Assembly (NCBI GenBank): GCA_002245135.1
Contig: NGBS01000603.1
Location: 62,001 to 126,000 of the forward strand
Source: Proteromonas lacertae
Taxonomy: Eukaryota; Sar; Bigyra; Opalinata; Proteromonadidae
Length of the DNA: 64,000 nt
Reading direction: 5' to 3'
Part shown: positions 1-42,000 of the stretch, piece by piece
Layout: the number at the start of each line of letters is the position of its first letter
How positions within the stretch are numbered: the stretch's first letter is position 1
Notes under the pieces: generated by a model
Told to the model about the DNA's origin: nothing
The model's input: the letters and a program-made list of their open reading frames with translations, nothing else
Database searches by the model: none
Position numbers and translations under genes: made by a program

Positions 1-2145
1 CATATTATATCATACACAATATTATTATTTTCATTCAGTAGTTTTAACGCTTCATTACTATTTAAAGCAGTATCAACTATTCCTATATTGAATTTATATT
101 TTAATATTCTTTTACATAATGATAAATGTATTTTATCATCATCAATAAGTAATATTTTTTGATCAAAATGACTAAAAGACTTTGAATTTGAATTAAATCT
201 CACCAATGCATCTTTCTTTACTTCAACAGGAATTTTTATAGTAAAAGTACTACCAATATTTGGTTTTGAACAAACTGTTAATTTTCCATTCAATAATTTG
301 CACATATTATAACAAAATGATAATCCTAAACCATTTCCACCTCCTGATTGTAACTGAATTGGATCTACTTGTAAATGTTTCTCAAATATGTTCGGTAGAA
401 CTTCTTCAGATATCCCAACTCCACTATCTGTCACTGATACTTCTAAATATTTATCTTCAAATATTGTTGAGACTATTATTGATCCTCCATAATTTGTGAA
501 TTTATACGCATTCTATTTTTAACATTATTATATTTATTATTATACAGAAACTAAATTCATGATTATTTCTTGTATTCTTAAACCATCTCCAATAAAAACA
601 ATTGGAATGTCTTCATTACATATACTTTTATATAATATTCTTTTAGACTATATACATTATATATATAAATATACAATTAGATTATGTTTAAATGTATTTG
701 CAACTTCCCATAGTAAAGGTCTTATTTCAAATGGTTTATTAATTATTTCTAATTTCCCACATTCCATTTTATCTATTGTTAATACTGAATTTACGAGATT
801 GTTTATGTATATTGTTTGTGTATGGATTATATTTGCATAATAATCATTATCAACTGAATTTTTATGTTGATTTTCTATTGATTCATCTTTTTTACTATTA
901 CTTTTTATCTCTGAAAGAAGTCTATCTACATTATTGATATTATTTATATCAAAATCAATATTAAAAGAAAAGATTCGTTTCTTTTACTTATTGATTTATC
1001 ACTTGGATAACTACTACATCTGATTCGACTACTCTTATCACTTAATATTTGTTGTTGTTCATTTTGTTGTTTATGAATATTCTGTTTTTGTTGAATATTC
1101 ACATCTTCCAATGAGGTGGTTGTATCTGTTGATTTATACGATGATATTGAATGTTTAACTAGAGATTGTGGGTCAATAATAATGACTGATTTAGTCTTAT
1201 CTTCACATACATTATCTGTTGTTTGTTTAGTAATAAATGATGCAGCAAGTGATACTGTTGACAGTGGATTTCGAATCTATTTATATTTTAAAAAATAATA
1301 AATACATCATGAAACAGTTGATTAACATAATCAGATTTTGCACTGTTTGCTCGACAAGCTTCATCTGATTTTAGTTTCAATTCCAAAGATAATTTGAACA
1401 TATTATGTGAAGATCTTTCTATTGAATAACTACTGTATGTTATTAATATTATTGAAAAGATCAATAGTATGAATTGATAAATATATTTTTCTTTCTCTTT
1501 ATCTTCCAAACACACGAAGAATAGTATGATGTATATTAATAAATACCATAACACTAATCCAACTGTGTGTTGAAATGGCAAATGAAACAATAATACTGAA
1601 CTCACAGTCAATAACATCATTATTATTATTACGTTTGTATAATCATATTTGGATGAAATATCATTTCCCATTATTATATATCCCATAAATTTGACTGATG
1701 TCTATTACAGTATATCATATACAAATGAGATTATACAAATATAGAAATTGTTCCAACTACTACAAGTAGTATACAGCTACTAACCACAGAATAACTCTTT
1801 TCAATGGATGTGTATTGTATTAGTACAGCATATACAACACAAGAGACTATAATCATTAAACTACATACCAACCTCCACAGAACATATGACCTATGTTCTT
1901 CTGCAAAGTAAATTATATCAGGTATATATAAAACACAGTGGAGTATACAACACAAAAACACAGATATTAAACGAATCTTCCTAGAACATTAAAACACAAT
2001 AATACATTGATTCCTTATTAACATAGTTTCTGTATCTAGTTTCTACCTTCTGATTAATAAAACTATTCCAAAAATGATGTAATTTAAGATCAAACTCACT
2101 ATATTTGTCGTCATCATCCACATTTAATATAATAGAACAATTCAT
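1..2145 (-). CDS. Membrane hybrid histidine kinase (HisKA-HATPase-receiver), 3' end outside window
   Basis: Autophosphorylating sensor kinase with a receiver domain, acting at a membrane. I start at the ATG at 2145. A 25-nt intron (1981-2005) leads into several hydrophobic segments (about 1960-1450). The H-box reads FHD-IRNPLS across an intron near 1270-1300. The HATPase part has the N-box NLVSNAYKFT across an intron near 500-550, the G1 box DSGVGI and the G2 box GGGNGLGF near 330-420. A receiver domain begins with ILLIDDDKIHL near 140 and runs off the window. At least four introns are visible. Between about 960 and 1010 the frame must shift by +2 (or -1) in a low-complexity insert between the H-box and the ATP-binding part; this could be a missed intron, an indel, or assembly error. 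Family assignment is certain; the input signal is unknown. Confidence 0.88.
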
Positions 2146-3760: not shown

Positions 3761-6679
3761 TTAACTTGATTTTGGAGGAAAGCAATACTTAGGGTTAGGT
3801 AAAAACTCATCATTCACCCATGTATAAGTAATAATATGTCTTTTCAACCAATCTTTCTCATTTCTTTGTTGATAAGTATCTTTAAAACTCGATAAATGAT
3901 CTCTATACATATCATTACTAACAATAACACCATCATGTTGATGTGCATAACCAATACAGTAATTATCATCGTAATCTTGTGAAGGAGTTGCTATTAAATT
4001 ACCATTAGCTATCAATTCCTTTAATAAACCAATATCATCAGGGATTTGAGATGCTTTGTTTGACAAACCAACTTCCATTATTCTTTTCTTTTCACCCACA
4101 CGTGTATAGTCTAAATAATAATCTGGAATAAATCCAATTACTTTATGTCCTTTATTTTCCCAATACTCTATACATAATTTAATACCTTTACAGGAGAATA
4201 GTTTATTTCCACCATGTCTCATTGCAATATTTGGAGCATCCATTACTATTAAATAGCCATCTTCATTCTCATCCTTCATTAATAATGATGATGTTTGTTG
4301 CTGTTGTTGCTGTGGAGGTGGTAATCTATATGATGAAGTATTATTACCATATTCTACTCTTCTTCTTCCTCTGCCTCTACCTCTTGTTGTTGTTGTTGTT
4401 CTTTCTGGTGATAATGATGGTGGTGGTGGTGGAGATGTTTCTGGTTTAGTGATATGTAATAATCCACCTCTTACTTTCTTTTCTTTATTGTTATTCTCAG
4501 TTTCTTCATTATCATTTGATTCTGATAACAATGATTCATTATTTGTTTCATTTTCATTTTCATTTTCTTCATTATCTTCTTCATCATTAAATAAAATATC
4601 TTCTCTGTCTTCTATATCTCTTTCATCTTCTTCCTTATCTTCTTTTCTTATTTCTTCCTTTGTTGTATTTTCTTCATCTTTTCTATCCAAAAATTCTTCT
4701 TCATTAGCATAATAAGTATCAGTTTCATTATCATAATATATTGATTTATTTTCATATAATAAAGCACCATAATCCCTTATTCTCATTATTCTTATTTGAT
4801 TGGGTGTAAATATCTCATCATTTCCATCACCATCTTTATCATTATTTACACTACCCATTCTATCATCATCATTATCATCATCTTCATCATCTTCTTCTTC
4901 TTCATTAATATCAACTTCTTTTTCTTTTTCTTCTTCTTTTTCAACATTTTCTTCTGCTTCTGGTTTTGCTTCAGTTTCTACTTTTTCTTCATCACTTTTT
5001 TCTTTTTGAGGGGATTTATTTTTGGTTGTTTTTGTTTTCGTTTCATCTTTTATCATACCGATTGGCCACTATATAAATAATAATAATAATATATATTAAT
5101 AAATATACTAAATATCTTCTAAACGGAACATACATCCCATACAATACATCTTCACTCAAATCGCCTTTACTTTTATCACCATTTTCCATCACTTCATTAT
5201 CCTTAATACAATTCATAAATGGAGTGATCACTTCTACTAATCCAGTCATTACTTTATCTTCTATTAATTCTAAATGATCTGGATTATTGTTACACCAAAC
5301 GCAGAAAAAGCTGATTACTTTTAAATATACCATTAATTTCATATAAAAATCACTTTCTGCATTATCTTCGACTAAATAATTATCATATGTATTAATTATT
5401 TCTGTCATATACTTGTAAATGAAATTGATTATTTTCCTGCTTTCTATTTCATTGCTTTGTTTGATAATATCATAGGATAAAAGTAATAATACTAAAGATT
5501 CAGTTAAATATCCATAAACTATTGATTATAATATATATATATATATAAATACTATCAATAATTCCTTCGTTAAAACAACTCAACAACTCTTTCACTAACG
5601 TTACTGTCTTTCCTTCTGTTTCAACGTATTTATCATTATCAACATTCGAATAGCAGATATAAATTAATCTTAAGAAATATAAAGATAAAACAGAATGAGG
5701 AAGCATTTCATTTCTAAAATATTAGAAAAATTAAAAATATATATACATTTTTGGTAATGACGTTGAATTTGTGATTAATCTTTTCCTCTGTAATAATGTC
5801 ATTAGTTCATTATTTGCAGTACCCAAACTTGTTAATAATTTATCATTATTCTTTATACTGAATGCACAGCATTTACCACATATTAACTCAAAACAACTGG
5901 AATAGTTGAATTTCATTAGATTGTATTTATCAGAGATCTTTTCATTCACTTCTCCATTGATTGGTAATATTTTATGTGCCTTTATATAACTTTTGATATT
6001 TGGACTGGATATTTCTCCACTATTAGCTATTTCTCCTAAAATGAACAATACAATCTTGAACTATCTTTAATGGAGGGAATAATGGATCTTCTGCAACTAT
6101 ATTGTACAATATAGAAGGGGTGATAAGACTTGATTTTGTACTTTTTTATAATTGATTTCACTAATTCTGAAAAATATGTCTTTGCATTACTATATAAAAA
6201 ATAAATAAATATTATATTATTATACTCTATCAATTGCTGAAGTTCTTTTTTCTTAGTATCAGTGTTATAGTGATGATTTTTAAGTTCTTCAATTTTGTTC
6301 TTCACATCAGTTATCTAGTTGAAGTATATATACACAAAATATACATCTTTGTTATAAAGAATCCAAATCTTTTTAGGACTATTATTCTTTAATGCTTCTG
6401 TGATGTTGTTGAAGATCAAATACCTGTAGATTTTGCTTAGATTCTCTTTGATATAACTCAATGTCATTTCTTTTACCTCGCATGTCTTTGTAACTGTTCA
6501 ATTTGACGAATTCTTCTTGCCAGTTTTTCATATACAATATTAATTTCATCATTGTGGCTTTTGATGGATCAAAGTCTTTTATTATTGGTATTTTCTTAGT
6601 AATTGAGGTTGAATCTAGATTTTCGCTCTTAGCCCATGCAGGGATATTATTCTCATTAGATCCTATGAATACTATTCAT
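3761..6679 (-). CDS. EST1/SMG5-6-7-like protein fused to a Regnase-type NYN ribonuclease domain
   Basis: Predicted RNA-decay endonuclease of roughly 860 residues. The N-terminal half resembles the EST1/SMG TPR-like region: WILYNKDI, then FILGEIANSGE, then a helical stretch SYIKAHKILPINGE that matches the family pattern of a YYxxAxxLxPxNGxPYNQ helix pair. A long Asp/Glu-rich linker (about 5050-4600) and a PQ-rich stretch follow. The last 160 residues are a Zc3h12a/Regnase NYN domain: VMDAPNIAMRHGG, LFSCKGIKLCIEYW and DGVIVSNDMYRDH carry the conserved acidic active-site residues. All joins through eight introns are in frame, including 5069-5108, which links the SMG-like half to the acidic linker. 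The 5' end is unresolved: the frame is open to about 6664 without a clean ATG, so a small first exon may lie between 6670 and 6800. Alternatively 3761-5056 could be a separate gene starting at MIKDE, but the in-frame splice argues against it. Confidence 0.72.
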
Positions 6680-6881
6680 TATAGTATTTTATACTGCTTT
6701 TATACATAGATTGTATTTCTATGTTAATTTAAAATGAAATTAATTCCCAAATGTTAACAAAAATAGAGTCGTTCTAAAATGGGTGAATGATATTTAATCG
6801 AAAAAGAAAAACCGTTTTAATCGTTTCAATCATTAATTTTTGAATTTTTTATTGTATTAAAGTAAATATAGAAGTATAAAA
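6680..6881. promoter_or_regulatory. Divergent promoter region, EST1-NYN gene / dynein heavy chain
   Basis: About 200 bp of AT-rich DNA separates two genes transcribed away from each other; it must hold both 5' regions and perhaps the missing first exon of the minus-strand gene. I see no clear motif. Confidence 0.4.
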
Positions 6882-9800
6882 ATGTCAGAAGAAGATGTAG
6901 ATCCACGTATTACGTGGATGAAGAACTTAGTTGTACCAGCAACAGGAATACTAGATTTTGAGTGGACTAGAGTGATGAAGAAGGAAGTAAATCATCAAAT
7001 ACTTTATGATTTTATCAATACTGATCCTCGTATATATTATTATTATTATATTACTTGACTAGATGGTACAACAATTTATTTCTATGCAGTATTACCAAGT
7101 ACAGCAGCAATAGGTCAAGATGGATATTACATATTTGATCCTTTAGATTTAAGATTTTATGTGTCAAAGAATGAAATTCCTGCAGGAACACACGAATATA
7201 GATCGTACTATATGACAAAAGAAATGGATGGAGATATGGTAAATGAAGCAACAATGGCAGCTAATATTGATATGGGAGTAATGACAGGTGATCATTTAAG
7301 AAATGTAGCTGAAATCATCAATCAAATATATATTCCATTAATCGAAGATGGTCATCAAAAGAACAAGAATTCTGATAATACCACTTTAATCCAGGAGTTT
7401 AGAACAGTAATTCATACCTTAGCAAGTAGTTTAATAAATGCTAGTATGCATGTGAATGGTCAAGTATACTTAAAAATGCCAGATGTAACAAATGAAGAGT
7501 TGGAAAGTGGAGATGATTTTGATATGTTGGCAAAGTTAGAAGCCGCATTAGATGATTGGACACAACAAATAGCTTTAATAGTAGAACAAGAAAAAGGCAA
7601 AGTCCCCAAAGAACCAGGTCCAAATGGTGAAATCGAGTTTTGGCGTCAAAGAAATGCAATTATTTCTACTGTTTATGAACAAGCTAATTTACCCAAAGTT
7701 CAACAAATATTATCAGTCTTACAAAGATCAGGATCTGGTGGTTTATCTACATTCAATTTCCATCGTGATGAATTAAAGAAATTATATACAGAAGCAGTAG
7801 ATAATGTGAAATTCTTAGTCAACTTTAGAAAGATACTTTAAGAATATAATGACTGGTGATTTGAAGCTGATAAAAGAGACATTAGAACCATTAATGAATG
7901 GTTTGAGAATGATTTGGATTATATCTCGTCATTATAATACAGATGAAAGGATGGTTCCTTTAATGGAAAGAATAGCTGAAGAAATTGCAGATAAAGTTGC
8001 TTTAACAATTGATATAAAGAATATATTCAGAAAGCCATCCAGTGAAACAATAGAATTAGTTCAATTAGCAATTGATGTATTAGAAGGATGGAGTAGTACT
8101 TATCAATCAATAAGAAAGAAAATTGAAGATTCTGGAACAGATCACAGATGGGAATTTGAAAAGAGAAGATTATTTGAAAGAACCAATTATATGGCAGAGA
8201 TTTGTAAGAATATTCAAGAAGTTTCTAAAGTATTAGATGAATTTAAGAAGTTCCTTGGTCCTGATTTGAGAGAAGTAACTGGTGATACAGCAGGAATAGA
8301 TAATCTCTGTCAAAGAGTGGAAAGTTTGATTCAACCAATGGAAACATCTCCATTTGATATATTTGATAAGAAGTTTAAAGCAAGTTGGGAGAATGTAATG
8401 ACAACATTTAGAGATCAAGTTAGAACCTTTAGAAGAAATGACAGTAACATTTATTAATAGTTCATTTAGAAAATTACGAAGTGCTTTAGGTGCATTTGAA
8501 TTATTAAAAGGATTTCAGAATATAAAGAGTCGTCAAGCAATCAATGAAACAATGAATAAGAAATTTGATGATATTTTAGTTCAATTCTTGAAAGAAATTG
8601 ATGATGCTCAAAATCTATTTCATAGTAGACAAAGTAATCCACCATTGAATAAGAATTATCCACCTGTAGCTGGTGCAATTATCTGGGCAACTAGCTTATA
8701 TAGTTCATTACATGAAGCTGTTATTAGTTTTAAATCAAAACCTGGTTTAATGGAAAGTCCAAGAGGTTTACAAGTAAGAGAGAAGTATTTAGCATTATCA
8801 AAAGAAATTGACGCTTATGCATTGAATAAATATCAAGAATGGGTAAATCAAGTGAAAGTTGTAGCATCTGAACATTTAAAACAACCATTATTAACAACAG
8901 TAAATGCATTAAAAGGAAAATTACCAACTAAAAAGACAGTTCATATAAGTGGTGAATTTGTAATGCCACCTCCTCCATATGCTGTTAATTTCAGTAATGA
9001 ATTACGAACATTAGTAAAAGAATGCAAATATTTAGATGAAATCCAATTAGAAATACCTGAAACAGCATTAAATGTTTCACTACAAGCACAAAAATTCCAT
9101 TCTTATTGTGAAGCAATCGAACAAATGTTGAGTGATTATCATAATGTAATTAACAACTTAAATCCAGTGGAAAAGAACTTGCTTCATGGTAAATTAGATG
9201 AATTAAATAGTGTATTAAAACGTGGATTTGATCCATTGAATTGGAATTCTTTACATATTCATACATTTATTGATTTATGTAATAGTGCAATAATGAAATT
9301 CCAAAGCACTATTGGTAATATTCATAAATTCAGTAATTTGATAGAAGATGTAATTACAGCCATAACAAAGACCTCATTAGTTCAAGAAAAAGACTTTATT
9401 CCTACAAAAGTTTATGATTTAACCGAATTCTGTGATATATTAGAAAAGAATCGTCAGAAAAGAGTTCAAGTATTAAAATCTCAATATGAAAATATTGGTG
9501 ATCAATTAATAAAGATAGAAGAAGAAATCGAAAATACAAATACAGGAAAATCCCCATTAATGTATGATTATTATATCTATTGGGAAAAGAAGATATTTAA
9601 TGCCATAACAACAATGATATTAAAATCCTTTTCAACCCTTGGATCTTTATTACAAGTATTACCAAATTGTACAATAAAAAGAGGTCCATTATTTGAAATT
9701 GTTGCTTCAATCAATCCACCAGATATTGTTATAACTCCAACAATTCAAGATGTTGATAAGATGTTAAGAAAAGTAGTAGATCAGATAGTAGGAAGTGCAA

Positions 9801-12800
9801 GATCCTTTGTAAGATGGAAAGATCGAAGTTGTTTGAAATGTGAAGAATTGAAAGGTCCTGATGATGAACCGATAATATTTTCATTCTATGATGATATATC
9901 TGGTCATTCTCATGTAGTTAATATGATTTATTCAATTTGGCAAGGTTCATTCAAAGTATTATTCAATATGGTAAAGAAATATATTGATTCTTGGAGAAAA
10001 TATGATAAACCATATAAATTATGGGATACTAAAAAGAACCAAAAGGATCAATTCAGAGATCAAAAACCTGGTTTGATCTACTTTGATTCTAGATTAAGTG
10101 CTTATCAGAAATTAGCTCAAACTGTTAGTAAACTACCTGGTTTTAGAGATGTAGTATTTGTTCGAGTAGATTGTCAACAAGTAGCAATGGCAATACAGAA
10201 ACAAGCTGATGCTTTGAGATTAGAATATGGTGGAATAATGAGAGATTTGATATTTGATGTATTACAAAAGAATGAATGTATTTGTCATGATTTAAAGAGT
10301 GATTTGGATACTGTTTGTAATGATTTAGAAGATTTGAAATTCGTATTAAATAAAGTGAATGAAGTGACAAAAGAGAATTTAGGAATGTCTTTAGTTAGAG
10401 ATGAGATTGAAGAATGGTATAGAACATTAGAATTATACAATATTCCAGTAGATGATGCTGAAAAAGAAAGAGAATTAGCATTTAGAAAACTATGGAAAGA
10501 TACATTAGATTATGGTAATACAATGAATCATCGATTATCTCCAATTATTGAGAAATTCCGAAAAGTGACAGTAGAAGATGTGAATAAATTCTTAGCTGAG
10601 ATTGATGTATATCATCAAGAATACTTTGAACATGGTCCAACTAATGAAGAAATTACCTTAGATGAAGGTGTAGAATTATTAGATAAATTCAAATTACAAA
10701 CTCAAAAATTAAATGAAAAGAGAGAAGAATTAGTTAATACTGAGATGTTATTCAAACTACCCATCACTCCATATCCCAAATTAATCGAAGTACAACAAGA
10801 TATGAATAAGATAAATGAAATCTATGCGATGTATAAACGAATAAGAGACTTTATTGATGAGAATTCTAGTATGTTATGGAGTCAATTAGATATTGATCAA
10901 ATCCAACGAGGTGCTGATCAATTAGAGAAAGAATATAGAAAATTCTCAAAAGAATTGAAAGCTTATCCATTATATACAAAAGTAAAAGAAGTAATTGATA
11001 ATTTCAAAGAGAGTTTACCATTAATTCAGAATTTGAAAGATGATTGTATGAAACAAAGACATTGGCAAAAATTGATGGAAGTAACAGGAGTTCAATTCAC
11101 AATAACAAAGACATTTACATTACAAAACATCTTTGCAATGAATTTAGCAAGATTCAAAGATCAAATTGATGAAATTGTAGCTGGTGCTCAAGGTGAAGCA
11201 AAGATTGAAAATATGATAAAAAAGATTGAAGAAAAATGGAAGAATTTACAGTTTGGTTTAAGTAAATATATGAAAGGTAATGAAGATCGAGGTTTTGTAT
11301 TGAAAAGTGCAGATGATATAAAGATGATATTAGAAGAAGATATGTTGAATTTACAATCAATGAGTGGTTCAAGATTTGCTACAATCTTCATAGATGATGT
11401 AAAGACTTGGGAAAAGAAATTGAATACAGTTTCTGAATGTATAGAAATATGGTTTAAAGTACAAGCTAAATGGATGTATTTAGAAAGTATCTTTATTGGA
11501 AGTGAAGATATTCGTTTACAATTACCTGAAGAAAGTAAAAGATTTGATGCAATAGATAAGAATTGGAAGAATATAATGATAGGAACAAATAAAAATCCAA
11601 ATTGTGTAGATGCTTGTCATTGTGATAATCGAGTTGAAACATTAAATGCATTGAGTAAGAAATTAGATGATTGTCAAAAAGGATTGAGTGATTATTTAGC
11701 AACTAAACGTAATGCTTTCCCTCGTTTCTTCTTCTTATCTGATGATGAGTTATTGAGTGTATTAGGTTCATCTGATCCACAATCTATTCAAGTTCATTTG
11801 TTGAAATTATTTGCAAATTGTAAAACAATTCATTTTGGTCGAGGATGTGAAACTGTAACAGGTATGACAAGTAGTGAAGGAGAATCGTATAATTTTGAAG
11901 ATCCATCAACTGTAGAAGGTCCAGTAGAAAACTGGATGACAAATGTTCAAGAAGAAATGAAGCATTCTTTAAGAATCATCTGTAAAACAGGTGTATTCTA
12001 TTATGCAAAACATGAACGTATTCCATGGATAGAAGAAAGATTAGGTATGGTGACAGTATTAGGAAGTCAAATCTGGTGGACATGGGAAGTAGAAGATGTA
12101 TTCCGAAGAGTGAGACAAGGTGATAAAAGAGCTATGAAAACATTAGAAAGAAAATTAACAGGTCAATTAAATGCAATGGTTGCGAAAGTTCGAGAAAATT
12201 TGGTAGAAAATACAAGAAAGAAGTTTAATACATTATTAATTATAGATGTTCATGCTCGAGATATAGTTGATTCATTTGTAAGAGATAGTATATTAGATGA
12301 AAGAGAATTTGCTTGGGAAAGTCAATTGAGATTCTATTGGGATCATGATAGTGATGATGTAAGAATTAGACAATGCACTGGTACATTTAAATATGGTTAT
12401 GAATATATGGGATTGAATGATCGTTTAGTTATTACACCATTAACTGATAGATGTTATATGACAATTACTCAAGCATTGACATTCAATTTAGGATGTTCAC
12501 CTGCTGGTCCAGCTGGAACAGGTAAGACTGAAACTGTGAAAGATTTGAGTAAAGGTTTGGCTTTACCTTGTTTTGTAACAAACTGTGGTGAAGGTTTGGA
12601 TTATAAAGCGATGGGTAGTATCTTTAGTGGTTTATGTCAAGTTGGAGCTTGGGGTTGTTTTGATGAATTTAATCGTATTAATATCGAAGTGTTATCTGTT
12701 GTATCAGCTCCAAATTCGAGCCTATTCAAAATGCATTGAATGAAGGTGCTGATGTAGTTGATATTGGTTTAGGTAAAGAAGTGAAATTAGATAGTCGTGT

Positions 12801-15800
12801 TGGTATATTTATTACTATGAATCCTGGTTATGCTGGTCGTACAGAATTGCCTGATAACTTAAAAGCATTATTTAGACCAGTTACTATGATTAAACCTGAT
12901 TTATTACAGATTTGTGAAATTATGTTATTCTCTGAAGGTTTTGAAAGTGCTAGAGTATTAGCTAAGAAGATGACTGTATTATATCAATTAGCCCAAGAAC
13001 AATTATCAAAACAATACCATTATGATTTTGGTTTAAGAGCTTTAAAATCTGTATTAGTGATGGCTGGTTCATTAAAGAGACAATTCTCAGATAAAAGTGA
13101 AGAATTGGTGTTAATGAGAGCTTTGAGAGATATGAATATGCCAAAATTTGTATTTGAAGATGTTCCATTATTCCAAGGTTTGATTGGTGATTTATTCCCT
13201 GGTTTAGATTGTCCTCGTGTAGGTTATCCTGAGTTGAAACAAGCAATTGAAGAAGTATTAACTGAAAAACAATTCCATCATAGTGATGAAGAGAAATTCC
13301 AATTACAAGTAGATAAAGTGATTCAATTATATGAAACAATGTTGACTAGACATACAACAATGATAGTAGGTCCAACAGGTGGTGGTAAGACAGTGGTTAT
13401 TGATACACTACAAAAAGCAATGATGCCTGCATTCGATAAGAATGTAAAGATATTTGTATTAAACCCAAAAGCTCAAGGTTTATTCCAACTATATGGTGTA
13501 ATGGATCCAGTAACAAGAGATTGGACAAATGGTGTTTTATCTAATATATTCAGAAGTATAAATAAACCATTACCAATTGGTAAAGATGGTAAAGAAATCA
13601 ATGAAATTCGTTGGATATTATATGATGGTGATGTAGATGCAGTTTGGGTAGAAGATATGAATAGTGTAATGGATGATAATCGAACTTTAACTTTGCCAAA
13701 TGGTGAAAGAATAAGATTACAGAATTACTGTAAGATGTTATTTGAGACATTTGATTTACAATATGCTTCTCCAGCTACAATTAGTCGATGTGGTATGGTA
13801 TTTGTAGATCCAAAGAACTTAGAATATCAACCATACTATGAATGGTGGGTTAAGAATCGATGTGATCAAAATCCAACAAAGAAACAAGAAAAAGAATTAT
13901 TAATGGAATTCTATATGAAATATGTTCCTCCAATTATTGCTTATATATTGGAAGGTTTAGATGAAGGTGAAATTGGTTTAAGATGTCGACAAGGTATTCC
14001 ATTCACTAATTTGAATATGGTAATGCAGTTAACATCATTCTTAGATGCCGATATTAATCGAAGGAGTAGATACAAGTGATCGTGATATAGTAGAAGGATG
14101 TTATTTATACTCAATCTACTGGTCATTTGGTGCTTGTTTAGATGAAAGAGATCGAACAAGATTTGATTTATTTGTAAAAAAAGTATGTGGTTTAGCTTTA
14201 CCAAATGATCAATTATTCTATCAATTCTTTGATGTAGAATCAAGAAGATGGGAACCTTGGGATAAACAAGTGACTGAATATCAACCACCAGTTCCATTTG
14301 AATTCTATAAAGTGTTAGTTCCAACTCGAGATTTCGTAGTATATTCTAGTCATTTGAAGAGAATGAGTAGTGTTGAAAGACCTTCATTATTTGTAGGTAT
14401 AAGTGGAACAGCTAAAACAATCACAATTCGTAAATTCTTAGAAGATTTGGAACATGATAAATTCAACAAATTAACAATGAACTTCAGTTCTAGAACCACT
14501 GGTTTAGATGTTCAAAAGAATATTGAAGAAAATACTGATAAGCGAATGGGTAAAATCTATGGTCCACCAAATGGTAAGAGATTAATGACGTTTATTGATG
14601 ATTTGAACATGCCTAGAGTAGATAAATATGGTACACAACAACCAATTGCCTTGTTATTGTTCTTAATTGGTCGACATTCAATGTTTGAACGAAGTAGAGA
14701 TTTGGAATTATTAACTTATCGAGATATGAATTATGTAGCAGCAATGGGACCTCCTGGAGGTGGTAGAAATGCAGTTGATCCTCGATTTGTATCACTATTC
14801 AGTTTCTTCGATTTACCAGCTCCATCTGAAGAAGTATTGAATAAGATTTATTCCACCATTGCTAAATCTTACTTTGCTGAATTTACTGAAGGTATTCAAA
14901 AGTTTATGGATAAGATTACTCCTGTTACTTTACACTTATACACTCAAATAATTGATGGTTTACCTCCAACACCATCTAAATTCCATTATATATTCAATCT
15001 TCGTGATTTAGGTAGAATCTATGAAGGTATGTGTTTAGCCACACCTGATATATTCAAAGAAGATAAGCAAATGGCCAGATTATGGATAAATGAATGTAAA
15101 AGAATCTTCTCTGATCGTTTAATTTGTGATGAAGATATAAAATTCTTAGATGAAAAGATTCGAGATGGAATGAAAGCTGATTTTAGTGCATTTATTGATG
15201 AAGCAATAGCTGAACCAATGGTATTTGGTAATTATAAGAATGCAGCTGCTCGTATTTGTGAAGGTGCAGAAGATGCTCGATTATATCAAGATTTAGGTAC
15301 ATCTGATGCTGCTAGAGCTATATTTGATGAAATCTTAGAGAATTACAATGTAGATAATAAACCAATGAATTTAGTCCTTTTCCTAGATGCTTTGAATCAT
15401 TTAACTCGAATAATTCGTATAATATGTGTTCCAAGAGGTAATGCTTTATTAGTTGGTGTAGGTGGTAGTGGTAAACAATCATTAACAAGATTAGGTACTT
15501 ATACATTAGGATATACACTGTTTGAAATCTCATTAAGTAAGAATTATGGTGAAAATGAGTTTAGAGATGATTTGAAAGAATTGTATAAGTTATTAGGTAA
15601 AGGTCCAGTAGTATTCTTATTCACAGATGCTCATTGTGTAGAAGAATCATTCTTAGAATTATTAAACAACATGTTAACAACAGGTATGGTTCCTGCATTA
15701 TATGAAAGTGATGAAAAAGATGGTTTATTAATGACAGTTAGACCAGAAGTACAAGCTAAAGGTATAATTGATACACCTGATAATTTATGGAATTATTATG

Positions 15801-18800
15801 TTGATAAATGTCGAAATAACTTACATATAGTATTAGCCATGTCTCCATCAGGTGATGCATTGCGTATAAGATGTCGTAACTTCCCTGGAATGGTATCAAA
15901 TACAGTAATTGATTGGTTCTTCCCATGGCCACAAGATGCTTTAGAAAAGGTAGGAGAACACTTCTTAGCTGAACAAAAGTTACCTGAAGAACATCGTATG
16001 AATATAATTAGACATATGGTTTATGTTCATATCTCTGTTGTATCTAAAGCTGATCAATTTTTACATGAATTAAGAAGACATTATTATGTAACTCCCAAGA
16101 ATTATTTAGAATATTTATCAAATTATATAAATACAATGAAGAGAATTAATGATGCAATTAGCAGTCAAATTACTAGATTAGATGGTGGTTTAGGTAAATT
16201 ATCTGATGCAGCTCAAGCTGTAGAAATAATGAGTAAAGATTTAGCTAAAAGAAAAGTAGTCGTAGATCAAAAGAAGAATGAAGCAACCATAATGATTAAT
16301 GATATAAACACTAAGAAAGAAACAGCAAGTCGAGATCAAGAAGCAGCAACAATGAAACAGAAAGAATTAGAAGAAGATGCTGTAATAATCGAAGAAGAAC
16401 AAGCTAAAGCTAATACAGCTTTAGAAGCAGCTTTACCAGCCTTAGAAGCAGCTAGTGAAGCTTTAAAGAGTTTGAATAAGAAAGATATTGTAGAAATTCG
16501 ATCTTTTGCCAATCCACCAAATTTAGTGAAATTGGTTTGTACTTGTGTAGTTTATTTAAAACCATTTGATGATATTGATGATAGTGGAGATTTATGGGGA
16601 CAAGCTAAGATGATGATGACAAGAACTGATTTCTTAGATCGATTACAGACATATGAAAAAGATAAGATTAAAGAAAAACAAATTCAAAAAGTTAAAAGAA
16701 CTTACAGTGCTAATAGTGATTTTAATTATAACAGTTTAAAGACAGTCTCTAAAGCTGGTGCTGGTTTATTCAAATGGGTAGATGCAATGGTTAATTATTA
16801 TGATGTATTTAAGAGTGTTCAACCATTGAAAGAGAAAGTGGCTGAGATGGAAAAGAGACAAGAAGAATCTCGAAGAGATTTAGCAAATATTAAAGAAAAA
16901 TTATTGAAATTACAAGATGAGATTGAAACATTATCAAAGAATTATGCAGTAGCTAAAGAAGAATTAGATGCGTTAGAAGCTGAAGCAAATCTTATGGAGA
17001 AGAGATTAAATGCTGCTAGTAAATTGATAAGTGGTTTAGGTGGTGAACAAATAAGATGGACAGAAGATAAAGGTAAATTATTAGAAAGATCCAGTCATGT
17101 AATAGGTGATGCTTTATTATGTGCTTCCTTCTTAAGTTATGCAGGTGCCTTTACATTCAATTATCGAGAAGATTTAATAAAGAATATGTGGTTGAGTGAT
17201 GTAGAAGATAAAAAGATTCCATTATCTGAACCATTTAATTTACAGAATTTATTATCATCTGATGCTGAAGTACAAAGATGGATAGGTCAAGGATTACCAG
17301 CTGATGAATATTCTGTTCAAAATGGTATCTTAACATCTCAAGCTAGTCGATTCCCACTTTGTATTGATCCTCAACAACAAGCTGTAGCTTGGATAAAGAA
17401 TAAAGAAAAAGCAAATCATTTGATCGTAAGAACATTTGCTGATGATTTCATGAAACATTTAGAATCTGCCGTTCAATTTGGTCATACATTTGTATTTGAA
17501 AATGTAGATGAAGAAATCGATCCAATCATTGATCCAATCTTAGAAAAGAATACATTCTTACAAGGTACAACATTAAGTATAAAGATAGGTGATAAAGTAT
17601 TACAATGGGATACTAACTTCCGATTATTCTTAACTTCAAAATTAGCTAATCCTCATTATTCTCCAGAAGTAATGGGTAAATTAATGATTATTAACTATTC
17701 AGTGACATTAGAAGGTTTAGAGAATCAATTATTGAATGTAGTTGTATATAATGAAAGACCTGATTTAGAAGAACAATATGTTCAATTGATTCAAGAAACA
17801 ACTGCTAATACTCAAATGTTGGTGACATTAGAAGATACATTATTGAGAGATTTAGCTAATTCTGAAGGTAATATATTAGATAATGAAGCATTAGTAACAA
17901 CATTAGATGAAGCTAAGACAAAAGCGAATGATATTAAAGCCAAATTAGAACAAGCCAAATATACAACTGAATCTATAAATAAAACAAGAGCTATTTATTC
18001 TGTAGCAGCTAAGAGAGGTTCAATCTTATTCTTTGCAATGTCTGGATTATCAATAGTGAATAGTATGTATGAAATCTCATTAGCTTCCTTCTTAACAGTG
18101 TTTAAATATTCATTGAAAGTAGCAAAGAAAGATCCAAATGTAAGTGGAAGATTACGAAATATAATGAATGAAACAACCTCTCAATGTTATGATTATACAT
18201 GTACAGGTATATTTGAAAGACATAAGCTGATGTTTTCATTCCAAATGGTATGTATGATATTAGAAGGTGAAGGAATGTTAAATCGAACTGAATTAGATTT
18301 CTTCTTGAAAGGAGATCAATCATTAGAAGATGTATCTCGTCCTAAACCATTTGATTGGTTAACAATAGTCGGTTGGAAAGATTTAGTAAAATTAGCAACC
18401 TTAAAAGAAGAATTAAGTAAATTACCTGATGATGTAATGAATAATGAGAAAGTATGGAAAGATTGGTATGATTTAGAAACTCCTGAAAAAGAACCATTAC
18501 CAATGAATTACAATGAAAATTGTGATGATTTTGAATTATTATTAATCTATCGATGTTTCAGACCTGATCGAGTTTATAATGCAGTAAAATTGTTTGTAAT
18601 TAAAAAGATGGGTTCAAAGTTTGTACAACCTCCAGTGTTAGATTATAATCGTGTATTCTCTCAAAGTACTGCATTTAACCCAGTTGTATTTATATTATCT
18701 CCAGGTGCTGATCCTCAATCTGATATTCAATTATTAGGTGCAGAGAAAGGATTTAAAGGAAATAAATTCCGATTCTTAGCTTTAGGTCAAGGTCAAGGAG

Positions 18801-20464
18801 AAGTAGCTGAAGCAATGTTAGAAAGTGGTATAAGTAAAGGATATTGGGTATTATTACAAAACTGTCATTTATTGACATCTTGGTTAAAAGTATTAGAAAA
18901 GAAATTAGAAAGCATGCATACACCACATGAACAGTTTAGATTATGGTTAACAACAGATCCAACTGATAAATTCCCATTAGGTATATTACAAAGATCTGTG
19001 AAAGTAGTAACAGAACCTCCTGATGGATTAAAACAAAATATGAGAAGTTTATTATCCAAATTAGATGATAATGTAATGAATGAATGTCCACATACTGCTT
19101 ATAGACCATTAATATTTACTTTATGTTTCTTACATGCTGTAGTATTAGAAAGAAGAAAATATGGTAAGATAGGTTGGAATGTGAGTTATGATTTTAACGA
19201 ATCTGATTTCAATGTATCTCGAAGATTATTAGGATTATATTTAACAAAAGCATTTGAGAATGGTGATGAAATGATTCCATGGGGTTCATTGAAATACTTA
19301 ATAGGTGATGCAATGTATGGTGGAAGAGTATCTGATAACTTTGATCGAAGAGTATTACAAACATATTTGAATGAATATTTTGGTGATTTCTTATTTGATA
19401 CATTCCAACACTTTTACTTCAGTCAATCTGATTTTGATTATACTTTACCTGAAGATGGTCCATTATTGAATTATACTGAATATGTTGAAACATTCCCATT
19501 GACAAACTCTCCTGCTGTATTTGGTTTACATCCAAATGCCGAAATTAGTTATTTCAGTAATGCAATAAAATCAATGTGGAGAGATTTAATCGATTTACAA
19601 CCTAGAACAGCTTCATCTGGTACTGGCATTAGTCGAGAAGATTATATAGGTCAAACAGCAGCAGGTATAACAGCAAAATTACCCGAATTGGTGGATTTAG
19701 TTGCTTTAAGAAAGAGATTACCTGAAATCACTCCAACATTAGTTGTATTATTACAAGAAATTGAAAGATGGAATAATTTAGTAGCAAAAATGACAAGTTC
19801 TTTAACTGATTTACAGAAAGCATTGAAAGGTGAAATTGGTATGTCTGATTCATTAGATGCATTGGGAGATGCTTTATACAATGGTTTCTTACCTGAAATG
19901 TGGGCAAGATTAGCTCCAGCAACCTTAAAACCATTAGGTAGTTGGATGAATCATTTCAAGAGAAGAGAAGCTCAATATAATGATTGGATGGACAATGGTG
20001 ATCCAAAAGTGATATGGTTATCTGGTTTACATATTCCTGAATCTTATTTAACAGCCTTAATTCAAACAACTTGTAGAATAAAGAACTGGCCTTTAGATAA
20101 ATCAACATTATATACAGTCGTATCAAAATATACATCAGTTGATCAAGTACCAGCAAAATTAGAACATGGAACATATGTAACAGGTTTATATTTAGAAGGA
20201 GCGAAATGGGATTTAGAGAATATGTGTTTAGCTAAACAAGATCCGAAAGTGTTAGTAGTTGAATTGCCAATCTTACAAGTTATACCAATCGAAGCTAGTA
20301 AATTGAAGTTACAAGATACATTCCAAACTCCAGTTTATGTAACACAGAATCGTCGAAATGCAATGGGTGTTGGTTTAGTATTTAATGCAGATTTATCAAC
20401 AAAAACTCATATCAGTCATTGGGTATTACAAGGTGTTGCATTATTCTTAAATACTGATGAGTAA
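6882..20464 (+). CDS. Axonemal dynein heavy chain, probably inner-arm I1 (DNAH10-like)
   Basis: Motor subunit of a flagellar dynein, about 4,510 residues, the normal family length. One intron (7030-7062, 33 nt). N-terminal tail and linker run to about 12500. AAA1 has GPAGTGKTE and CFDEFNRI, AAA2 GPTGGGKTV (13371), AAA3 GISGTAKT (14398) and AAA4 GVGGSGKQS (15455). The stalk coiled coil and microtubule-binding tip follow (about 16130-17080), then AAA5-6 and the C-terminal domain ending VTQNRRNAMGVGLVF and HWVLQG. The DNAH10 call rests mainly on this C-terminus and overall likeness; DNAH2 is the main alternative. The frame is broken at five places, each needing one base skipped: 7818, 8431, 12710-12711, 12723 and 14059. 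The restored frame at each gives dynein-conserved sequence (for example TLERYFKNI, and IQNALNEGADVV), so the gene is a single functional-looking locus. The last 6.4 kb has no break. Confidence 0.95.
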
Positions 20465-35653: not shown

Positions 35654-38600
35654 TTATTCAACATTTAAAAACACTTTTAATATTTCTTTCTTTTCTTCTT
35701 CTGAAATTCCATTCAGCTCTATTCTTCCAATTAAATCAAATGTGTCTAAAAATGATTTTAACTCTGATCTATCTATATTTTCCTTTACTGTTATTGATAA
35801 TCTATCCAATTTGTAAAATATTTCATGATTCTCTCTCATTAATTTCAATTCATTTTCATTTAATTCATTTCCTACTATATTAATACCTCTTGATAACTTA
35901 CAATCTATTAATCTTTCTAATAACATTATAAAACCTTTTTCACTCATTACAACTTCTATTCAAATCACATAATTATAATATAATAAAAATACTTGATAGA
36001 TTTAATGACAGTGGATTATAATGTCTATCTTTTTCAACAAATATATCCAAATATTTACAGATTATTTCTATACCTTCATCTCGAATTTCATTATTGAATA
36101 TTATAATATCTTCAGCATCTTTTGGTAAAGAATCTACTAACTCTTTTAATCCTTTTGAACTGATTTTATTTTTGGATAAATCAATTTCTTTAAAATCAAT
36201 CTGTTTAATTAATGATATGTGAGAATCATTAATATTCATATCTATTATTGATTAAATTTTAAAATTCTATACTTGAAAAATCATATTCCCTATAATCTAT
36301 CCTTTTCTTGTTTATACAATAATTCAAATAATACTCCAATTCTTCGTTTTTCCATGATGAACATTTTATTTTTATAAATGGATATTCTCCTTTTTCTAAT
36401 GATTTTGAACAAATTGTTTCTAATCCATTCATTCTGACATTATTTCCACTTAGATCTATTCTGTCACATTCTCTATTCGATTTTATATTATCTGCTAATA
36501 ATATTACACTTTCATCATCAATTGAGATATTACTCAAATTCATATTGTAAGGATATTCTATTAATATTTCTATATTATCTACAAACAATTTAAAACCATC
36601 ATTACCAATTGGATTATCTATTGATGAAATACAACAAACATTAATATAAAACATACTATGAATAATCAGTGTTTTAATATATAAATTTTCTTTCATAAGC
36701 TCTAGCAAATATTTTACTCCATTTGAATCAATATTATTATTACTTATATCAAGTATACTTACCCTTTTATCATACATTAAACCTTTTATTAAATACTTTA
36801 ATCCAACTGAAGATAATACCATTTCTATTTCATATTAAATATTAATAATTATACTTGAACAGTCAATTTTGCCACAATAGGGTAGTAAATAAGGCAAAGA
36901 ATGAAATAGCATTTTAATTCCTTCATCTCCTATCTCATTTCCACATAATTCAAGATGTTTAAGATTTGGAAATGATGATAGATTGTTAATCAGTAATTCA
37001 ACACTTTTAGATGTTAGTTTATTATCTAAAGTAATAGAAATAAATCAAACTATACTACATAAATTCAGCTCTTCTATTTCTCTCATCTCATTTGATCTTA
37101 AAGAAACAAACGATCTGAAAAGATCATCATCAATATCTGAATTACTCAGACTTAAACATTTATTATTTTTGATTATTTCTGGAACATCTCTATCAATCAG
37201 TAATTCAATACTCCCATTTAAATCAAATAATACTTTTGAAATAGGAAATTTGGAGAATAAAGCTTTTAATCCTTTTGAATGAATATTCCCGTTGAATTTA
37301 ATATCTATTTTGTTAATATTTGGATATTTATATAATTCTTCTGATAATAATATCATTGATTCATCATTCAAATTCATAAATTGAAGATCCAATTCATTAT
37401 CTTTGTTGATTAATAAATGTAGATATGGAAGTAAAAATTTGAATCCTTTTGGACCAATAGGATTAGCTATTCCAATATTAAAAAAAATATATCAAATACT
37501 TGCAACATCAATGTATTTTAATCTCATAAATGGAATTGATTTAACAAATGATTCAATGAAAATATAAGTAAATTTACAAAACAAAAACCCTAATTCTTGA
37601 AGACTTGACATATTACAAATATATAATGCAAATAATGGTTGATATTTGAATAAAACATTAACATTATCTACACAAAAAATAATGACCATGAATATACAGA
37701 AACTTAATTTTGTAGGATTGATTAACTTCAATATTCTAAAGAAATAATCCATTCCTTCTTCACATACACATATCACTGTAGAATTAATAACAATTCTTTC
37801 TTCAGCTAATCTATTGTAAATTCCAAATATCATTTTATCTAAATAACATTCTGATTTTTGTGTTTTGCATTTATGTTTAATCTGAAATTTCAGTCTATCA
37901 TTAATTGACTTATCTTTTTTGTATAATTCCTTCATTAATAGAATTGATAATATTCTCTCATTTGGATTATTATTGTAAAATTCTATCAATTCATCTAGAT
38001 GTGAATGCCACTTACAACTATGAAGAGTGTATTGCTGTGGATATAAAATTTCAAGAGTCATTATATCATTATTTGATAATATCTCTTTTCTTTCTTTCAT
38101 CATCATTAGATTATCATATTTATCTTTATATACTTTACACATTTTTATCATTTCCTTATTCAACTCTTTTAAACTCATTCTATCTTCATTCTTTAATTTC
38201 AACATTCTTTTTATCATTTCTTTCATTGAAATATTACATTCTACATCTAAATTATATTTACATCTCATGACATTATTAACTGTTCTTTTGATATTATTAT
38301 CTTCATTAAATGGTAATTTCTTACAAATCATTTCATATAATATACAGCCAATTGACCAAATCACACTTCTTTCATTACATTCATATCCATTCAACTCTTC
38401 TGGACTTTTAAAACAAAGATCATATATTTTCACATCTTCTTCTTTTCTCAACAAATCCAAGAACAAATCGCATATCTTTATATTATTATCTCCTTCAATT
38501 ATTACATTATTATTCTTTAAATTATTTATTACTATATAATATTCACTCAATACTATAACAACATCACATATTGAACTAATCACTCTACAAATATCACTGT

Positions 38601-38963
38601 TTGAAAAGAATTTACTTTGAATCATCTCCTCCAAATCTCTATCATAATAATTTCGTGATATCACTATACACTCACTATCTTTCTTAATCTGAAACACTCT
38701 AAAAGGACAGATAAAGGATAAACAACAATCTGATAATAAGGAGTTATTCTCACAGAAGTCTAATATTCTTTTTTCTTTCATTCCACATATATTTAATATT
38801 TTTATCACATTCACATCATTTTGCTGTTCAACTAACAAATCTACTTCATTTATACTCTTCTCTACTCGCTCTTTTAACTATTAAATATATTATACACACA
38901 TACTTTTATATTGGGATTTATATATTTCATTACATCCTCTACAATGAAATTACAGCAAAACAT
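35654..38963 (-). CDS. Pseudokinase with C-terminal leucine-rich repeats
   Basis: About 1,000 residues from eight exons. Starts MFCCNFIVEDVMKY and has a truncated kinase N-lobe with no glycine loop or VAIK lysine. The catalytic loop reads VINNLKNNNVII, so the HRD aspartate is replaced; the DFG motif is CDLF, and SPEELNG with VIWSIGCILYEM mark the C-lobe. It is therefore a predicted pseudokinase. After about 150 linking residues come ribonuclease-inhibitor-like LRRs (for example HLELCGNEIGDEGIKML and ILDISNNNIDSNGVKYL) ending VFLNVE. All six LRR introns are phase 1 and sit at the same place in the repeat. This fits a sensor or scaffold role, perhaps intracellular recognition, but no ligand is implied. 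A decayed relative lies at 21453-21620. Confidence 0.82.
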
Positions 38964-39049: not shown

Positions 39050-42000
39050 ATGAATGTTTTAGTTCAACAAAATCCCAATGCTCTAACAATAATAAAAGGT
39101 GAAATTTACAACGTTTTATCTCTAATTCGATCATATGATCAATTTTCAAATGAAGACCGTTTTATCAAAGAAGTTCCAGTTCATGTATGTGATATTGATG
39201 TAATGAATAGGCATTTTCTCCAATACTAAAAGCGTTTAAAACTCTTCATGATGCACTTTCTTCTTATGAAGAGTTAATGAATATTGATATCTATTCCTGT
39301 GTAGAAGTATTTCTTCGTGTAATGGTGAGTGAAGCATCAGGGTATAAAAGTTGATGTAATATTATCATCTTAGTGTTTCTATAACCAGTTCAGCTATTAA
39401 TGCAGTAAATGAATTTTTATTACATAATTTTATAACCTTAGATGTATTTAATATACTAATATTTATGAATAGTCTCCTCGTGCTTCAATTTGTATTAATC
39501 ATATCTCCACCTCAACTGTAAATTGTCGTTTTCAATCAGAATCACCTCGAATAGATGAAGTAGTCTATATGGGCTTATTAAATTTAGCATTAAACTGTAT
39601 AAGAAGTGAATCGTCAATTCTGATTTCAGATGGAAAGTATTTAATATATAATTATTAATATAATAGTCTATATAATCTATATCAAATGTGTATGAGATTT
39701 TCATCGCCAGATTATTCATTAGTCCTACGAACAAGTGCAGAAAATACATTGAAATGTATTATAAACATCGTCTTTGCTAGAACCAATGAAATTGGTACAG
39801 ATAAAGTATACCTATTAATATGATTATCTGAATAGTTATTAAATCCAAATTATAATAATAACGAACCTTCTGCTTCGCCAGATACTGCTGAAGATGATTA
39901 TGATTATCCACCACCAACACCATATGTATAATAATTATGATGTATAATATATAGGGTGAGAATTTATTTCGATTAATACTAGAAAATCTAGTTAATAAGC
40001 TTGATCCTCAAACCAATCCAATCTATTCTCAATCATTGAGTTTAATATTAGTAAATAATATAATAGAAAGTGGAGGAACTGGTTTAGGTAAAATTACTGT
40101 TATATTAGATTTAGTTCAAGTATATATATATATTATTTATATTTATTTTATTAGGGCGATTTATGTAAATATTTAAATATGATCAGTCAAAGTGCTGAAC
40201 AAAGTACGCTTCCACTAACACTTCGTGTAATATTCAACTTATTCAATTGTATGAAAGACTATTTGAAAGTACAATTAGAAGTATTTTTCAAATCAATTCA
40301 TTTGAGGATAATTGATAGTCCTTCTTATACACCAAATCAGAAGGAATTAGTGATGGAAAGTATGGTGGATTTCTGTAGAGAACCAACATTAATGCTTGAT
40401 TTATATACAAATGTATAGTTATCTATATTTAATCACTATAGTATGATTGTGATGTTGGAAGTACAAACCTGTTTGAAGATTTGTGTAATTGTTTGTGTAT
40501 TAACAGTGAACCAAAATGTAACGAATCTTTGAATAATCTTCATATTTTAGCATTTGATGGATTATTAGCGATTTTAAGTTCAATAGCTTCACGATGTGTT
40601 AAAGAAAAGAAACATTATCAATTGAATAATAACAATGTGAATGATTCAGATAGTGAAAATGAAGATTTTGGTTGGTTAGAAAAATCTAGAAATTTACGAG
40701 CTGAAGATTTGAGAAAGAGAAGAACGTTGAAAGTGAATATGAAGAAGTTTTGTGAGAAATTTAACTCAAATCCTGGTGGTAAAGAATGGTTACAATATTG
40801 TGAAGTATTTTATTATTCTTATTATAAATAGAAAGTTCAACTTATAACCAATAAGAATGACTGTAGTTCAATAGCCAGTTTACTACGATCTGCTCCATAT
40901 ATTGACAAAAACAAATTGGGGGAATATTTTGGCAGTGATCCAGAAAAACACCCCGAAATTAAAGATATCTTAGATGCATATACTGCTTCATTTGATTTTA
41001 AAGGTTTGAGTGTAGATCAAGCTATGAGAACATATTTAGAATGTTTTAAACTTCCAGGTGAATCATTACAGATTGATAGAATAATGGAATCTTTGAGTAA
41101 ACAACTGTATATAATATATATATATATTTACTTAGATTTTTACAAAGTTGTGGTCCATTCACAAAACAAGAGGATTTATTTGTCTTATGTTTTGCCTGTA
41201 TAATGTTAAATACAGACTTGCACAATCCAATGGTGAAAAACAAAATGAATTTAGAATCTTTCAAATTAAACCTCAAAAGTATCAATGATGGAAAAGACTT
41301 ACCAGATGATTATATAGAAAGAATATATAATAGTTTAAAAGAGAATGAATTACATTTACAACCAACATTCTCAGAATTACAGACAGCTACAGAATGGGAT
41401 AGAGTTTTAGCTAGATCAAAACAAGTAGCTGGTCCAGCATTTACATTTTCAACTCCAGGTAGAAGATTTACATTGAAAGCTGGCATTCATGAAAGAGATA
41501 TGTTTTTGTTGATTAATGATAAAGCATTAAATTCAATAACTGTATTTTTTTGTGTGTATTTTATTATATTTATTTAGAGTGTATTTGAACATACGAAAGA
41601 TATAACTGGCACTTTGAGAAAGACATTGTTAGGGTTTAGATATATGTGTAAAATAGCTCATTATTATGGAATTAGTGATGTATATTGTTATGTATTTATT
41701 ATTATATATAGATTATTAATACAATTGTTATCTATTTATGTAATGTAATTGAAAAGAAGATTGATAATCTACAAACTATTGAATCACTAAACACTCCTAA
41801 ATCATTCGATTCTTATGATGAACAACCAGATGAAGATATTAGAAATGTATATTTTTGATAATGTTTATATAAATATATATAGTTACAAAGTTGTTTATAT
41901 CCACTAAGAGCCTTAATAACCATAGTAATTGAATATGGAGATGAAATAAACGATGGTTGGAAAAATTTCATATTGTTTTTATTATATTTAAATAATAATG

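What the first reader, a model, noticed from the sequence alone, without database searches (positions are those of the whole stretch)
3761..6679. EST1/SMG-like protein carrying a Regnase-type NYN nuclease instead of a PIN domain
SMG6, the animal NMD endonuclease, pairs an EST1-like domain with a C-terminal PIN nuclease. Here the EST1-like half is joined by an acidic linker to a Zc3h12a/Regnase NYN domain with its acidic active-site residues. NYN and PIN share a fold superfamily, so this looks like a domain replacement giving a different NMD-type nuclease. The join across intron 5069-5108 is in frame.
Basis: partly seen in the sequence, partly recalled or inferred. Interest (0 to 1): 0.8.

Follow-up and report, generated by a model that had tools for sequence, protein, structure and literature searches.

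The report
Protist EST1-NYN mRNA decay nuclease (SMG6L-type)
This is a gene of an unnamed protist for a protein that probably finds faulty messenger RNAs with one half and cuts them with the other; the same two-part design is already known from the ciliate Tetrahymena (SMG6L), so it looks like a new member of a known family.

Summary
A minus-strand gene (about 6707 to 3761, six short GTAT...TAG introns placed by eye) joins an EST1/SMG5-6-7-like region to a Regnase-type NYN nuclease. Pfam EST1_DNA_bind scores 39.1 bits (cut-off 22) before the 5108-5069 intron and RNase_Zc3h12a 93.1 bits (cut-off 23) after it. The join rests mainly on relatives: 10 of 124 listed proteins carry both Pfam domains, among them Prymnesium, Achlya, Aphanomyces and Chrysoparadoxa. 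A relative's halves resemble human SMG6/SMG7 and ZC3H12C. The architecture is not new: Tetrahymena SMG6L, an SMG5/6/7-family protein with a C-terminal NYN that appears to work with UPF1, is described in a review (passages); the primary paper is not held. The EST1 half shows three frame jumps without introns, most likely assembly indels (indirect evidence). Side observation: the position of SMG7 R163 is Asn here, and this organism's UPF1 tail has no S/TQ, so recruitment may not need phospho-UPF1. New member of a known kind; interest modest.

The parts
6695..6707 (-). exon 1 with proposed start codon (MYKS...)
   Evidence: read by eye: ATG, then a GTAT...CATAG intron 6694-6663 that joins in frame; no transcript evidence
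6345..6662 (-). exon 2, N-terminal region and start of the EST1/14-3-3-like domain; one frame jump about 6480-6440
   Evidence: three-frame translation; colinear match of window residues 33-477 to a profile of relatives that leaves the window out, probability 94%, E 1.2e-7 for this one comparison
6226..6314 (-). exon 3, 14-3-3-like domain
5747..6189 (-). exon 4, 14-3-3-like/TPR part with LGEIANSGE; frame jumps near 6145 and 6040
   Evidence: position of SMG7 R163 counted
5553..5713 (-). exon 5, EST1_DNA_bind helices
   Evidence: Pfam PF10373 spans about 5817-5139 on the joined pieces
5109..5518 (-). exon 6, end of EST1_DNA_bind with LSEDVLYGMYVPF
   Evidence: PF10373 39.1 bits on the joined pieces, 22.4 bits on this exon alone in the genome search, cut-off 22; alignment
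5069..5108 (-). intron 6 joining the two halves
   Evidence: GTAT...ATATAG, 40 nt, in frame
3761..5068 (-). exon 7: arginine-rich helix (QIRIMRIRDYG, 4798-4766), acidic linker, NYN domain, stop codon
   Evidence: one 435-aa open frame; low-confidence helix at ORF residues 89-109, aligned to relatives' RVRLARLRRF by MAFFT but without gain in profile score
3797..4252 (-). RNase_Zc3h12a NYN domain; acidic residues D277, D367, D368, D386, D390 of the ORF
   Evidence: PF11977 93.1 bits, E 1.8e-26; nearest PDB sequences ZC3H12C/A/B; model block-mean pLDDT 76-97 over the domain, Foldseek best 7ndh E 3.7e-13

Best explanation
The gene encodes an SMG6L-type protein: an SMG5/6/7-family 14-3-3-like/TPR region, an acidic linker modelled without structure, and a C-terminal Regnase-type NYN endoribonuclease. 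Shown by computation: the two domains and their order, the acidic active-site residues, the same architecture in relatives, and UPF1 and a UPF2-like locus in the same genome. Inferred: the EST1-like half docks on UPF1 at a ribosome stopped at a premature stop codon, the flexible linker lets the NYN reach nearby mRNA, and the NYN cuts it with bound metal so that exonucleases clear the pieces, as SMG6 does with its PIN in animals. Inferred with less support: docking does not depend on phospho-UPF1 here, because the position of SMG7 R163 is Asn and the UPF1 tail has no S/TQ.
For: EST1_DNA_bind and RNase_Zc3h12a above cut-off. Both domains in one protein in 6 of 8 hits and 7 of the 120 listed of 135 hits, 10 distinct of 124. 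Window residues 33-477 match a profile of ten relatives that leaves the window out (prob 94%, E 1.2e-7). The same relatives' full profile matches the joined protein over positions 91-935 at 325.8 bits. The relatives' profile matches human SMG7 1ya0 (4.9e-44), SMG6 4um2 (2.5e-39) and ZC3H12C 7ndh (3.2e-26). The model of relative P0021 matches 4um2 (9.1e-12), 1ya0 (4.8e-10) and 7ndi (1.7e-5). UPF1 195.7 bits; UPF2 27.1 bits, 30.1 with neighbours in frame, cut-off 29.8. SMG6L described in PMC6173133 (passages).
Against: No transcript or protein evidence. Three frame jumps without introns in the EST1 half leave a damaged gene possible. PF10374 (EST1 N-terminal) gave no match on the composite or in the genome (where no control rang). 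The EST1 half alone found no convincing PDB sequence match (best E 0.11, arginine kinase). The joined score exceeds the sum of the parts by only about 7 bits (325.8 against 289.5 + 29.5), and adding the part of the last exon before the NYN to the EST1 part adds nothing (29.0 against 29.5); the hhalign match stops at the intron. The R..R...[FY] pattern of the helix turns up in 416 of 10000 shuffled linkers and occurs twice in the real one. Function in NMD rests on analogy; I could not compare with the Tetrahymena protein itself.
Confidence: 0.86

Rival explanations
1. Two neighbouring genes: an SMG7-like gene ending by read-through at about 5043 and a separate NYN nuclease gene starting at the ATG at 5056.
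For: Both stop and start exist in the sequence; no transcript data; many NYN hits lack a detectable EST1 region (107 of 124 not matched by the EST1-part profile); profile scores give little extra for the join.
Against: The genes would overlap by about 14 nt; the read-through tail is low-complexity and intron-like; relatives fuse the same two domains, EST1 first and NYN last in the rows aligned.
Confidence: 0.05
2. A decaying copy (pseudogene) of an SMG6L gene.
For: Three frame jumps in about 0.65 kb of the EST1 half, denser than the four in the 13.6 kb dynein gene next door; SMG7 R163 position not conserved.
Against: It is the only NYN locus found in the genome, and its EST1-half DNA was found only once; the 435-aa NYN exon is open with the acidic residues kept; the dynein gene also has jumps; two assembled copies of this genome's UPF1 differ by 26 gap openings and 1 mismatch over 4157 columns, so indel errors occur in this assembly, though most there lie in a different, small contig.
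Confidence: 0.06
3. A ribonuclease that uses the SMG-like half for another purpose (Regnase-like control of chosen mRNAs, or telomere work like EST1) and not NMD.
For: Among solved structures the NYN is closest in sequence to ZC3H12 Regnases. Plant DNE1, an NYN enzyme that binds UPF1, has targets of which about 21% are NMD-sensitive, much as in background sets (PMC10226599, passages).
Against: About ten residues follow the NYN, with no zinc finger found; the architecture matches SMG6L, which appears to work with UPF1.
Confidence: 0.1

Closest known systems
Tetrahymena thermophila SMG6L (Tian et al. 2017, seen only through passages of review PMC6173133)
   Same: SMG5/6/7-family protein with a C-terminal NYN; [quoted passage not shown]
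   Different: Sequence not held here, so identity not measured. The review says Tetrahymena lacks SMG1; here SMG1 and SMG8/9 gave no match, but no control rang
EST1+NYN proteins without a given function: Prymnesium (P0006), Achlya (P0016), Aphanomyces (P0019), Chrysoparadoxa (P0020), metagenomes (P0001-P0005, P0021)
   Same: Same domains; similar NYN with an insert before the PxQDYDDSY signature, in the rows aligned (P0004 not aligned there)
   Different: P0016, P0019, P0020 and P0021 carry a Cys-rich ribbon in the linker; the window has an acidic linker. The ten relatives of alignment A2 keep the arginine at the SMG7 R163 position; the window has Asn
Animal SMG6
   Same: SMG 14-3-3-like/TPR domain plus C-terminal nuclease of PIN-like fold
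   Different: SMG6 has a true PIN. PMC12923823 (start of abstract and two passages) reports that the SMG5 PIN enhances the SMG6 PIN through a composite active site; no second EST1-family gene was accepted here
ZC3H12A/B/C Regnases (MCPIP1)
   Same: NYN fold and acidic residues
   Different: No zinc finger found here; a different loop before YDD and an extra insert
Arabidopsis DNE1 / MARF1
   Same: NYN endoribonuclease linked to UPF1 and mRNA decay (PMC10226599, passages)
   Different: DNE1 has an N-terminal NYN and two LOTUS domains

Membership tests
SMG6L (EST1-like + C-terminal NYN) | SMG5/6/7-family region in the N-terminal half | tested here: met
   PF10373 39.1 bits, cut-off 22; relatives' profile prob 94%, E 1.2e-7; PF10374 not found
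SMG6L (EST1-like + C-terminal NYN) | C-terminal NYN with acidic residues | tested here: met
   PF11977 93.1 bits; D277, D367, D368, D386, D390; fold match
SMG6L (EST1-like + C-terminal NYN) | both on one polypeptide | tested here: met
   by inference, no transcript: in-frame intron and fused relatives; profile score adds little
SMG6L (EST1-like + C-terminal NYN) | sequence orthology to the Tetrahymena protein | not testable with these tools
   paper not held; no hit bore that name, and most hits bear none
SMG6L (EST1-like + C-terminal NYN) | acts with UPF1 in NMD | not testable with these tools
   UPF1 and a UPF2-like locus are in the genome; function needs experiment
SMG6 | C-terminal PIN domain | tested here: not met
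   no PIN family on the protein; the one PIN_4 locus found in the genome lies on another contig and its two scanned frames carry PIN_4 only
SMG5/6/7 phosphopeptide-binding 14-3-3-like domain | residues at SMG7 K66 and R163 | tested here: inconclusive
   positions counted in 1ya0; Lys aligned, Arg replaced by Asn in the window; their role is recalled, the alignment is weak there and a frame jump lies close by
Regnase (ZC3H12) | NYN followed by a CCCH zinc finger | tested here: not met
   about ten residues follow the NYN and no zinc-finger family was found
DNE1/MARF1 | N-terminal NYN with LOTUS domains | tested here: not met
   no LOTUS family; the NYN is C-terminal

The most novel reading that the evidence does not exclude
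EST1-NYN is the main NMD endonuclease of a large share of protists (stramenopiles, haptophytes, ciliates and this unplaced lineage), so the animal SMG6 PIN is one of two separate solutions; and in this lineage it has dropped phospho-UPF1 reading altogether, as the loss of the SMG7 R163-type arginine together with a UPF1 tail without S/TQ sites suggests.
Probability: 0.25. Interest if true: 0.45.

Novelty: new member of a known kind. Interest (0 to 1): 0.27.

Why it matters
It adds a clear case, in a lineage with no close named relative among the listed UPF1 hits, to the view that different eukaryotes fitted different nucleases to the same UPF1-docking scaffold. The relatives named here make the origin of the NYN fusion testable by a tree, and the missing arginine plus the S/TQ-free UPF1 tail make phosphorylation-free recruitment testable.

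Tried and rejected
Second EST1 genes: the genome search gave three other PF10373 matches. C1051 scored 28.5 bits, over the cut-off and above this gene's own exon (22.4), but the frame is a TPR array beside a Glyco_transf_41 domain, so an O-GlcNAc-transferase-like gene. C244 (17.0 bits) is the same kind. C158 (17.3 bits over 29 positions, under cut-off) was not resolved: two frames nearby were scanned (a lipase and one without a family), not certainly its own.

A PIN-bearing SMG6: the only PIN_4 locus (two exon matches on C1155) carries PIN_4 alone in the two frames scanned; that it reads like SWT1 is recalled.

Programmed +1 frameshifting: three of the jumps (two in dynein, one here) sit by TTTAG. 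Rejected because one of the four dynein jumps goes the other way, the other two jumps in this gene lack TTTAG, and indel errors occur in the assembly.

Micro-introns at the jumps: the GT...AG candidates I looked at by eye were shorter or less AT-rich than the six accepted introns, or left the wrong frame; no systematic scan was made.

The profile gains nothing from that stretch, its aligned letters there have low confidence, and its pattern occurs in 4% of shuffled linkers. It now counts as weak; I lowered the best explanation from 0.87 to 0.86 and raised the two-gene rival from 0.04 to 0.05.

SMG1 and SMG8/9: no match, but nothing rang in the controls, so absence is not shown.

Naming the organism: of 120 UPF1 hits listed (3911 in all) two unnamed metagenome proteins were close (92% and 73%), the next about 50%, mostly plants; the lineage stays unplaced.

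The 787-aa metagenome group (94 sequences of 700-800 aa): weak profile match to the EST1 relatives (prob 28.8%, E 6e-4), none to the window's EST1 part (prob 0.1%), and no Pfam EST1 on the one member scanned, P0031; undecided.

Literature. The word SMG6L with Tetrahymena was found in one paper, PMC6173133. Passages of PMC5709506, PMC10449492 and PMC3710099 were also looked at; the last held nothing on EST1. I make no claim that no other report exists.

Full report
What is there. The window lies in an unnamed 50.2 Mb genome of 1181 contigs. On the minus strand I read a gene from 6707 to 3761 with six introns of 30-40 nt, each GTAT...TAG and placed by eye: 6694-6663, 6344-6315, 6225-6190, 5746-5714, 5552-5519 and 5108-5069. 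The last exon is one 435-codon frame. The EST1 half changes frame three times without an intron (about 6480-6440, 6145, 6040), so I searched it as pieces joined by X (911 residues).

Is it more than chance. Pfam gives EST1_DNA_bind at 39.1 bits on the part before the last intron (34.1 on the whole; cut-off 22) and RNase_Zc3h12a at 93.1 bits on the last exon (cut-off 23). PF10374, the other EST1 family, was not found. The EST1 part alone finds nothing convincing among PDB sequences. A profile of ten relatives that leaves the window out matches window residues 33-477, probability 94%, E 1.2e-7 for that one comparison. The match runs in order through the frame jumps.

Is the join real. Six of eight hits of the first protein search carry both domains; of 135 hits of a second search with a diverged NYN, 120 were listed and seven of these do; together 10 distinct of 124 listed. 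Named holders are Prymnesium parvum, Achlya hypogyna, Aphanomyces invadans and Chrysoparadoxa australica. In the alignment of ten relatives (nine carry both Pfam domains, P0007 has EST1_DNA_bind just under cut-off) the EST1 side comes first and the NYN last. A local EST1-part profile finds 17 of 124, ten of them its own members. Their LPED.ELRGFLPL motif meets window LSEDVLYGMYVPF just before the intron.

Results against the join. The joined protein scores 325.8 bits against the relatives, its parts 289.5 and 29.5, so the gain is about 7 bits; adding the pre-NYN part of the last exon to the EST1 part gives 29.0, no gain. MAFFT puts QIRIMRIRDYG, after the intron, on the relatives' R.RLARLRRF helix, whose two arginines and phenylalanine are nearly invariant in A2; but the pattern R..R...[FY] occurs twice in the linker and in 416 of 10000 shuffles, and the hhalign match stops at the intron. 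The fused relatives and the in-frame intron carry the argument.

Structure. The window's NYN exon was modelled with 18 sequences; block-mean pLDDT over the NYN is 76-97 and the linker is mostly under 60, with one helix at residues 89-109. Foldseek ranks ZC3H12 structures first. Relative P0021 (ten sequences, mean pLDDT 64) matches SMG6 4um2, SMG7 1ya0 and ZC3H12C. By sequence the relatives' profile matches 1ya0, 4um2 and 7ndh at 4.9e-44, 2.5e-39 and 3.2e-26.

Active site. In 18 aligned NYNs D277, N280, D365, D367, D368, N385 and D386 are among the invariant columns and D390 is nearly invariant. They align with ZC3H12 residues; their catalytic role is recalled.

The rest of the pathway. The genome has UPF1 (195.7 bits) and a UPF2-like locus (27.1 bits, 30.1 with its neighbours in frame, cut-off 29.8). 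SMG1 and SMG8/9 gave no match, without a working control. One NYN locus and one PIN_4 locus, on another contig, were found. The organism's UPF1 has three S/TQ dipeptides in 919 residues, none after 537. After the helicase motif LNVALTRA it and its relative P0126 have none, while P0128, P0130, P0132 and P0168 have 12, 10, 19 and 14; P0125 and P0127 lack that exact motif, and P0125 has none after 533 and P0127 has seven after 880. PMC5709506 (passages) says S/TQ-rich UPF1 ends are phosphorylated and recruit SMG5/6/7. At the SMG7 R163 position the window has Asn, while the ten relatives of A2 keep Arg.

Frame jumps. Two assembled copies of this genome's UPF1 differ by 1 mismatch and 26 gap openings over 4157 columns; 23 of the gaps are bases missing from the small contig C799. 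The adjacent dynein heavy chain has four jumps at which I recognised no intron (near 7825, 8420, 12700, 14050). Indel errors are therefore the likeliest cause here too, but the evidence is indirect and a decaying gene is not excluded.

What is known. [quoted passage not shown] The primary paper is not held. The window gene fits that description in the features I could test. It differs from relatives aligned here in its acidic linker, the lack of the Cys-rich ribbon of P0016, P0019, P0020 and P0021, and the missing arginine.

Verdict. Observation confirmed; interpretation right on content and probable role, not on novelty or on the direction of a domain swap. New member of a known kind.

Noticed in passing
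window 6882-20464 (+): Dynein heavy chain gene next door with four frame jumps at which no intron was recognised (near 7825, 8420, 12700, 14050); three go +1 and one the other way; probably indel errors.
   Followed up: partly
L013 (G000:C48) and L016 (G000:C799): Two assembled copies of UPF1 differ by 26 gap openings but 1 mismatch over 4157 columns, so some contigs of this assembly are unpolished.
   Followed up: yes
L013:1370-4126 (-): UPF1 of this organism ends in an Asn-rich acidic tail with no S/TQ sites.
   Followed up: partly
proteins P0022-P0124 (94 of them 700-800 aa): A large group of similar metagenome proteins with a C-terminal NYN and an N-terminal half only weakly similar to EST1 relatives; possibly a very diverged SMG6L.
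   Followed up: partly
P0016, P0019, P0020, P0021, P0009: A Cys-rich ribbon (CxxC...CxxC) sits before the NYN; the window lacks it.
   Followed up: no
linker of relatives; window 4474-4451 (-): A short motif like GLLxGVNL occurs in 10 of 124 proteins, 31-74 residues before the NYN start; the window has a partial form, VRGGLLHI.
   Followed up: partly
window 3-512 (-): HATPase_c 71.5 bits plus a sub-cut-off response-regulator match: probably a hybrid histidine kinase.
   Followed up: no
window 37495-38877 (-), 41101-41574 (+), 51236-52243 (+), 61183-62529 (+): Protein kinase, Sec7, CDC45 and RGS matches.
   Followed up: no
window 44033-44104 (+): tRNA-Gly (tcc).
   Followed up: no
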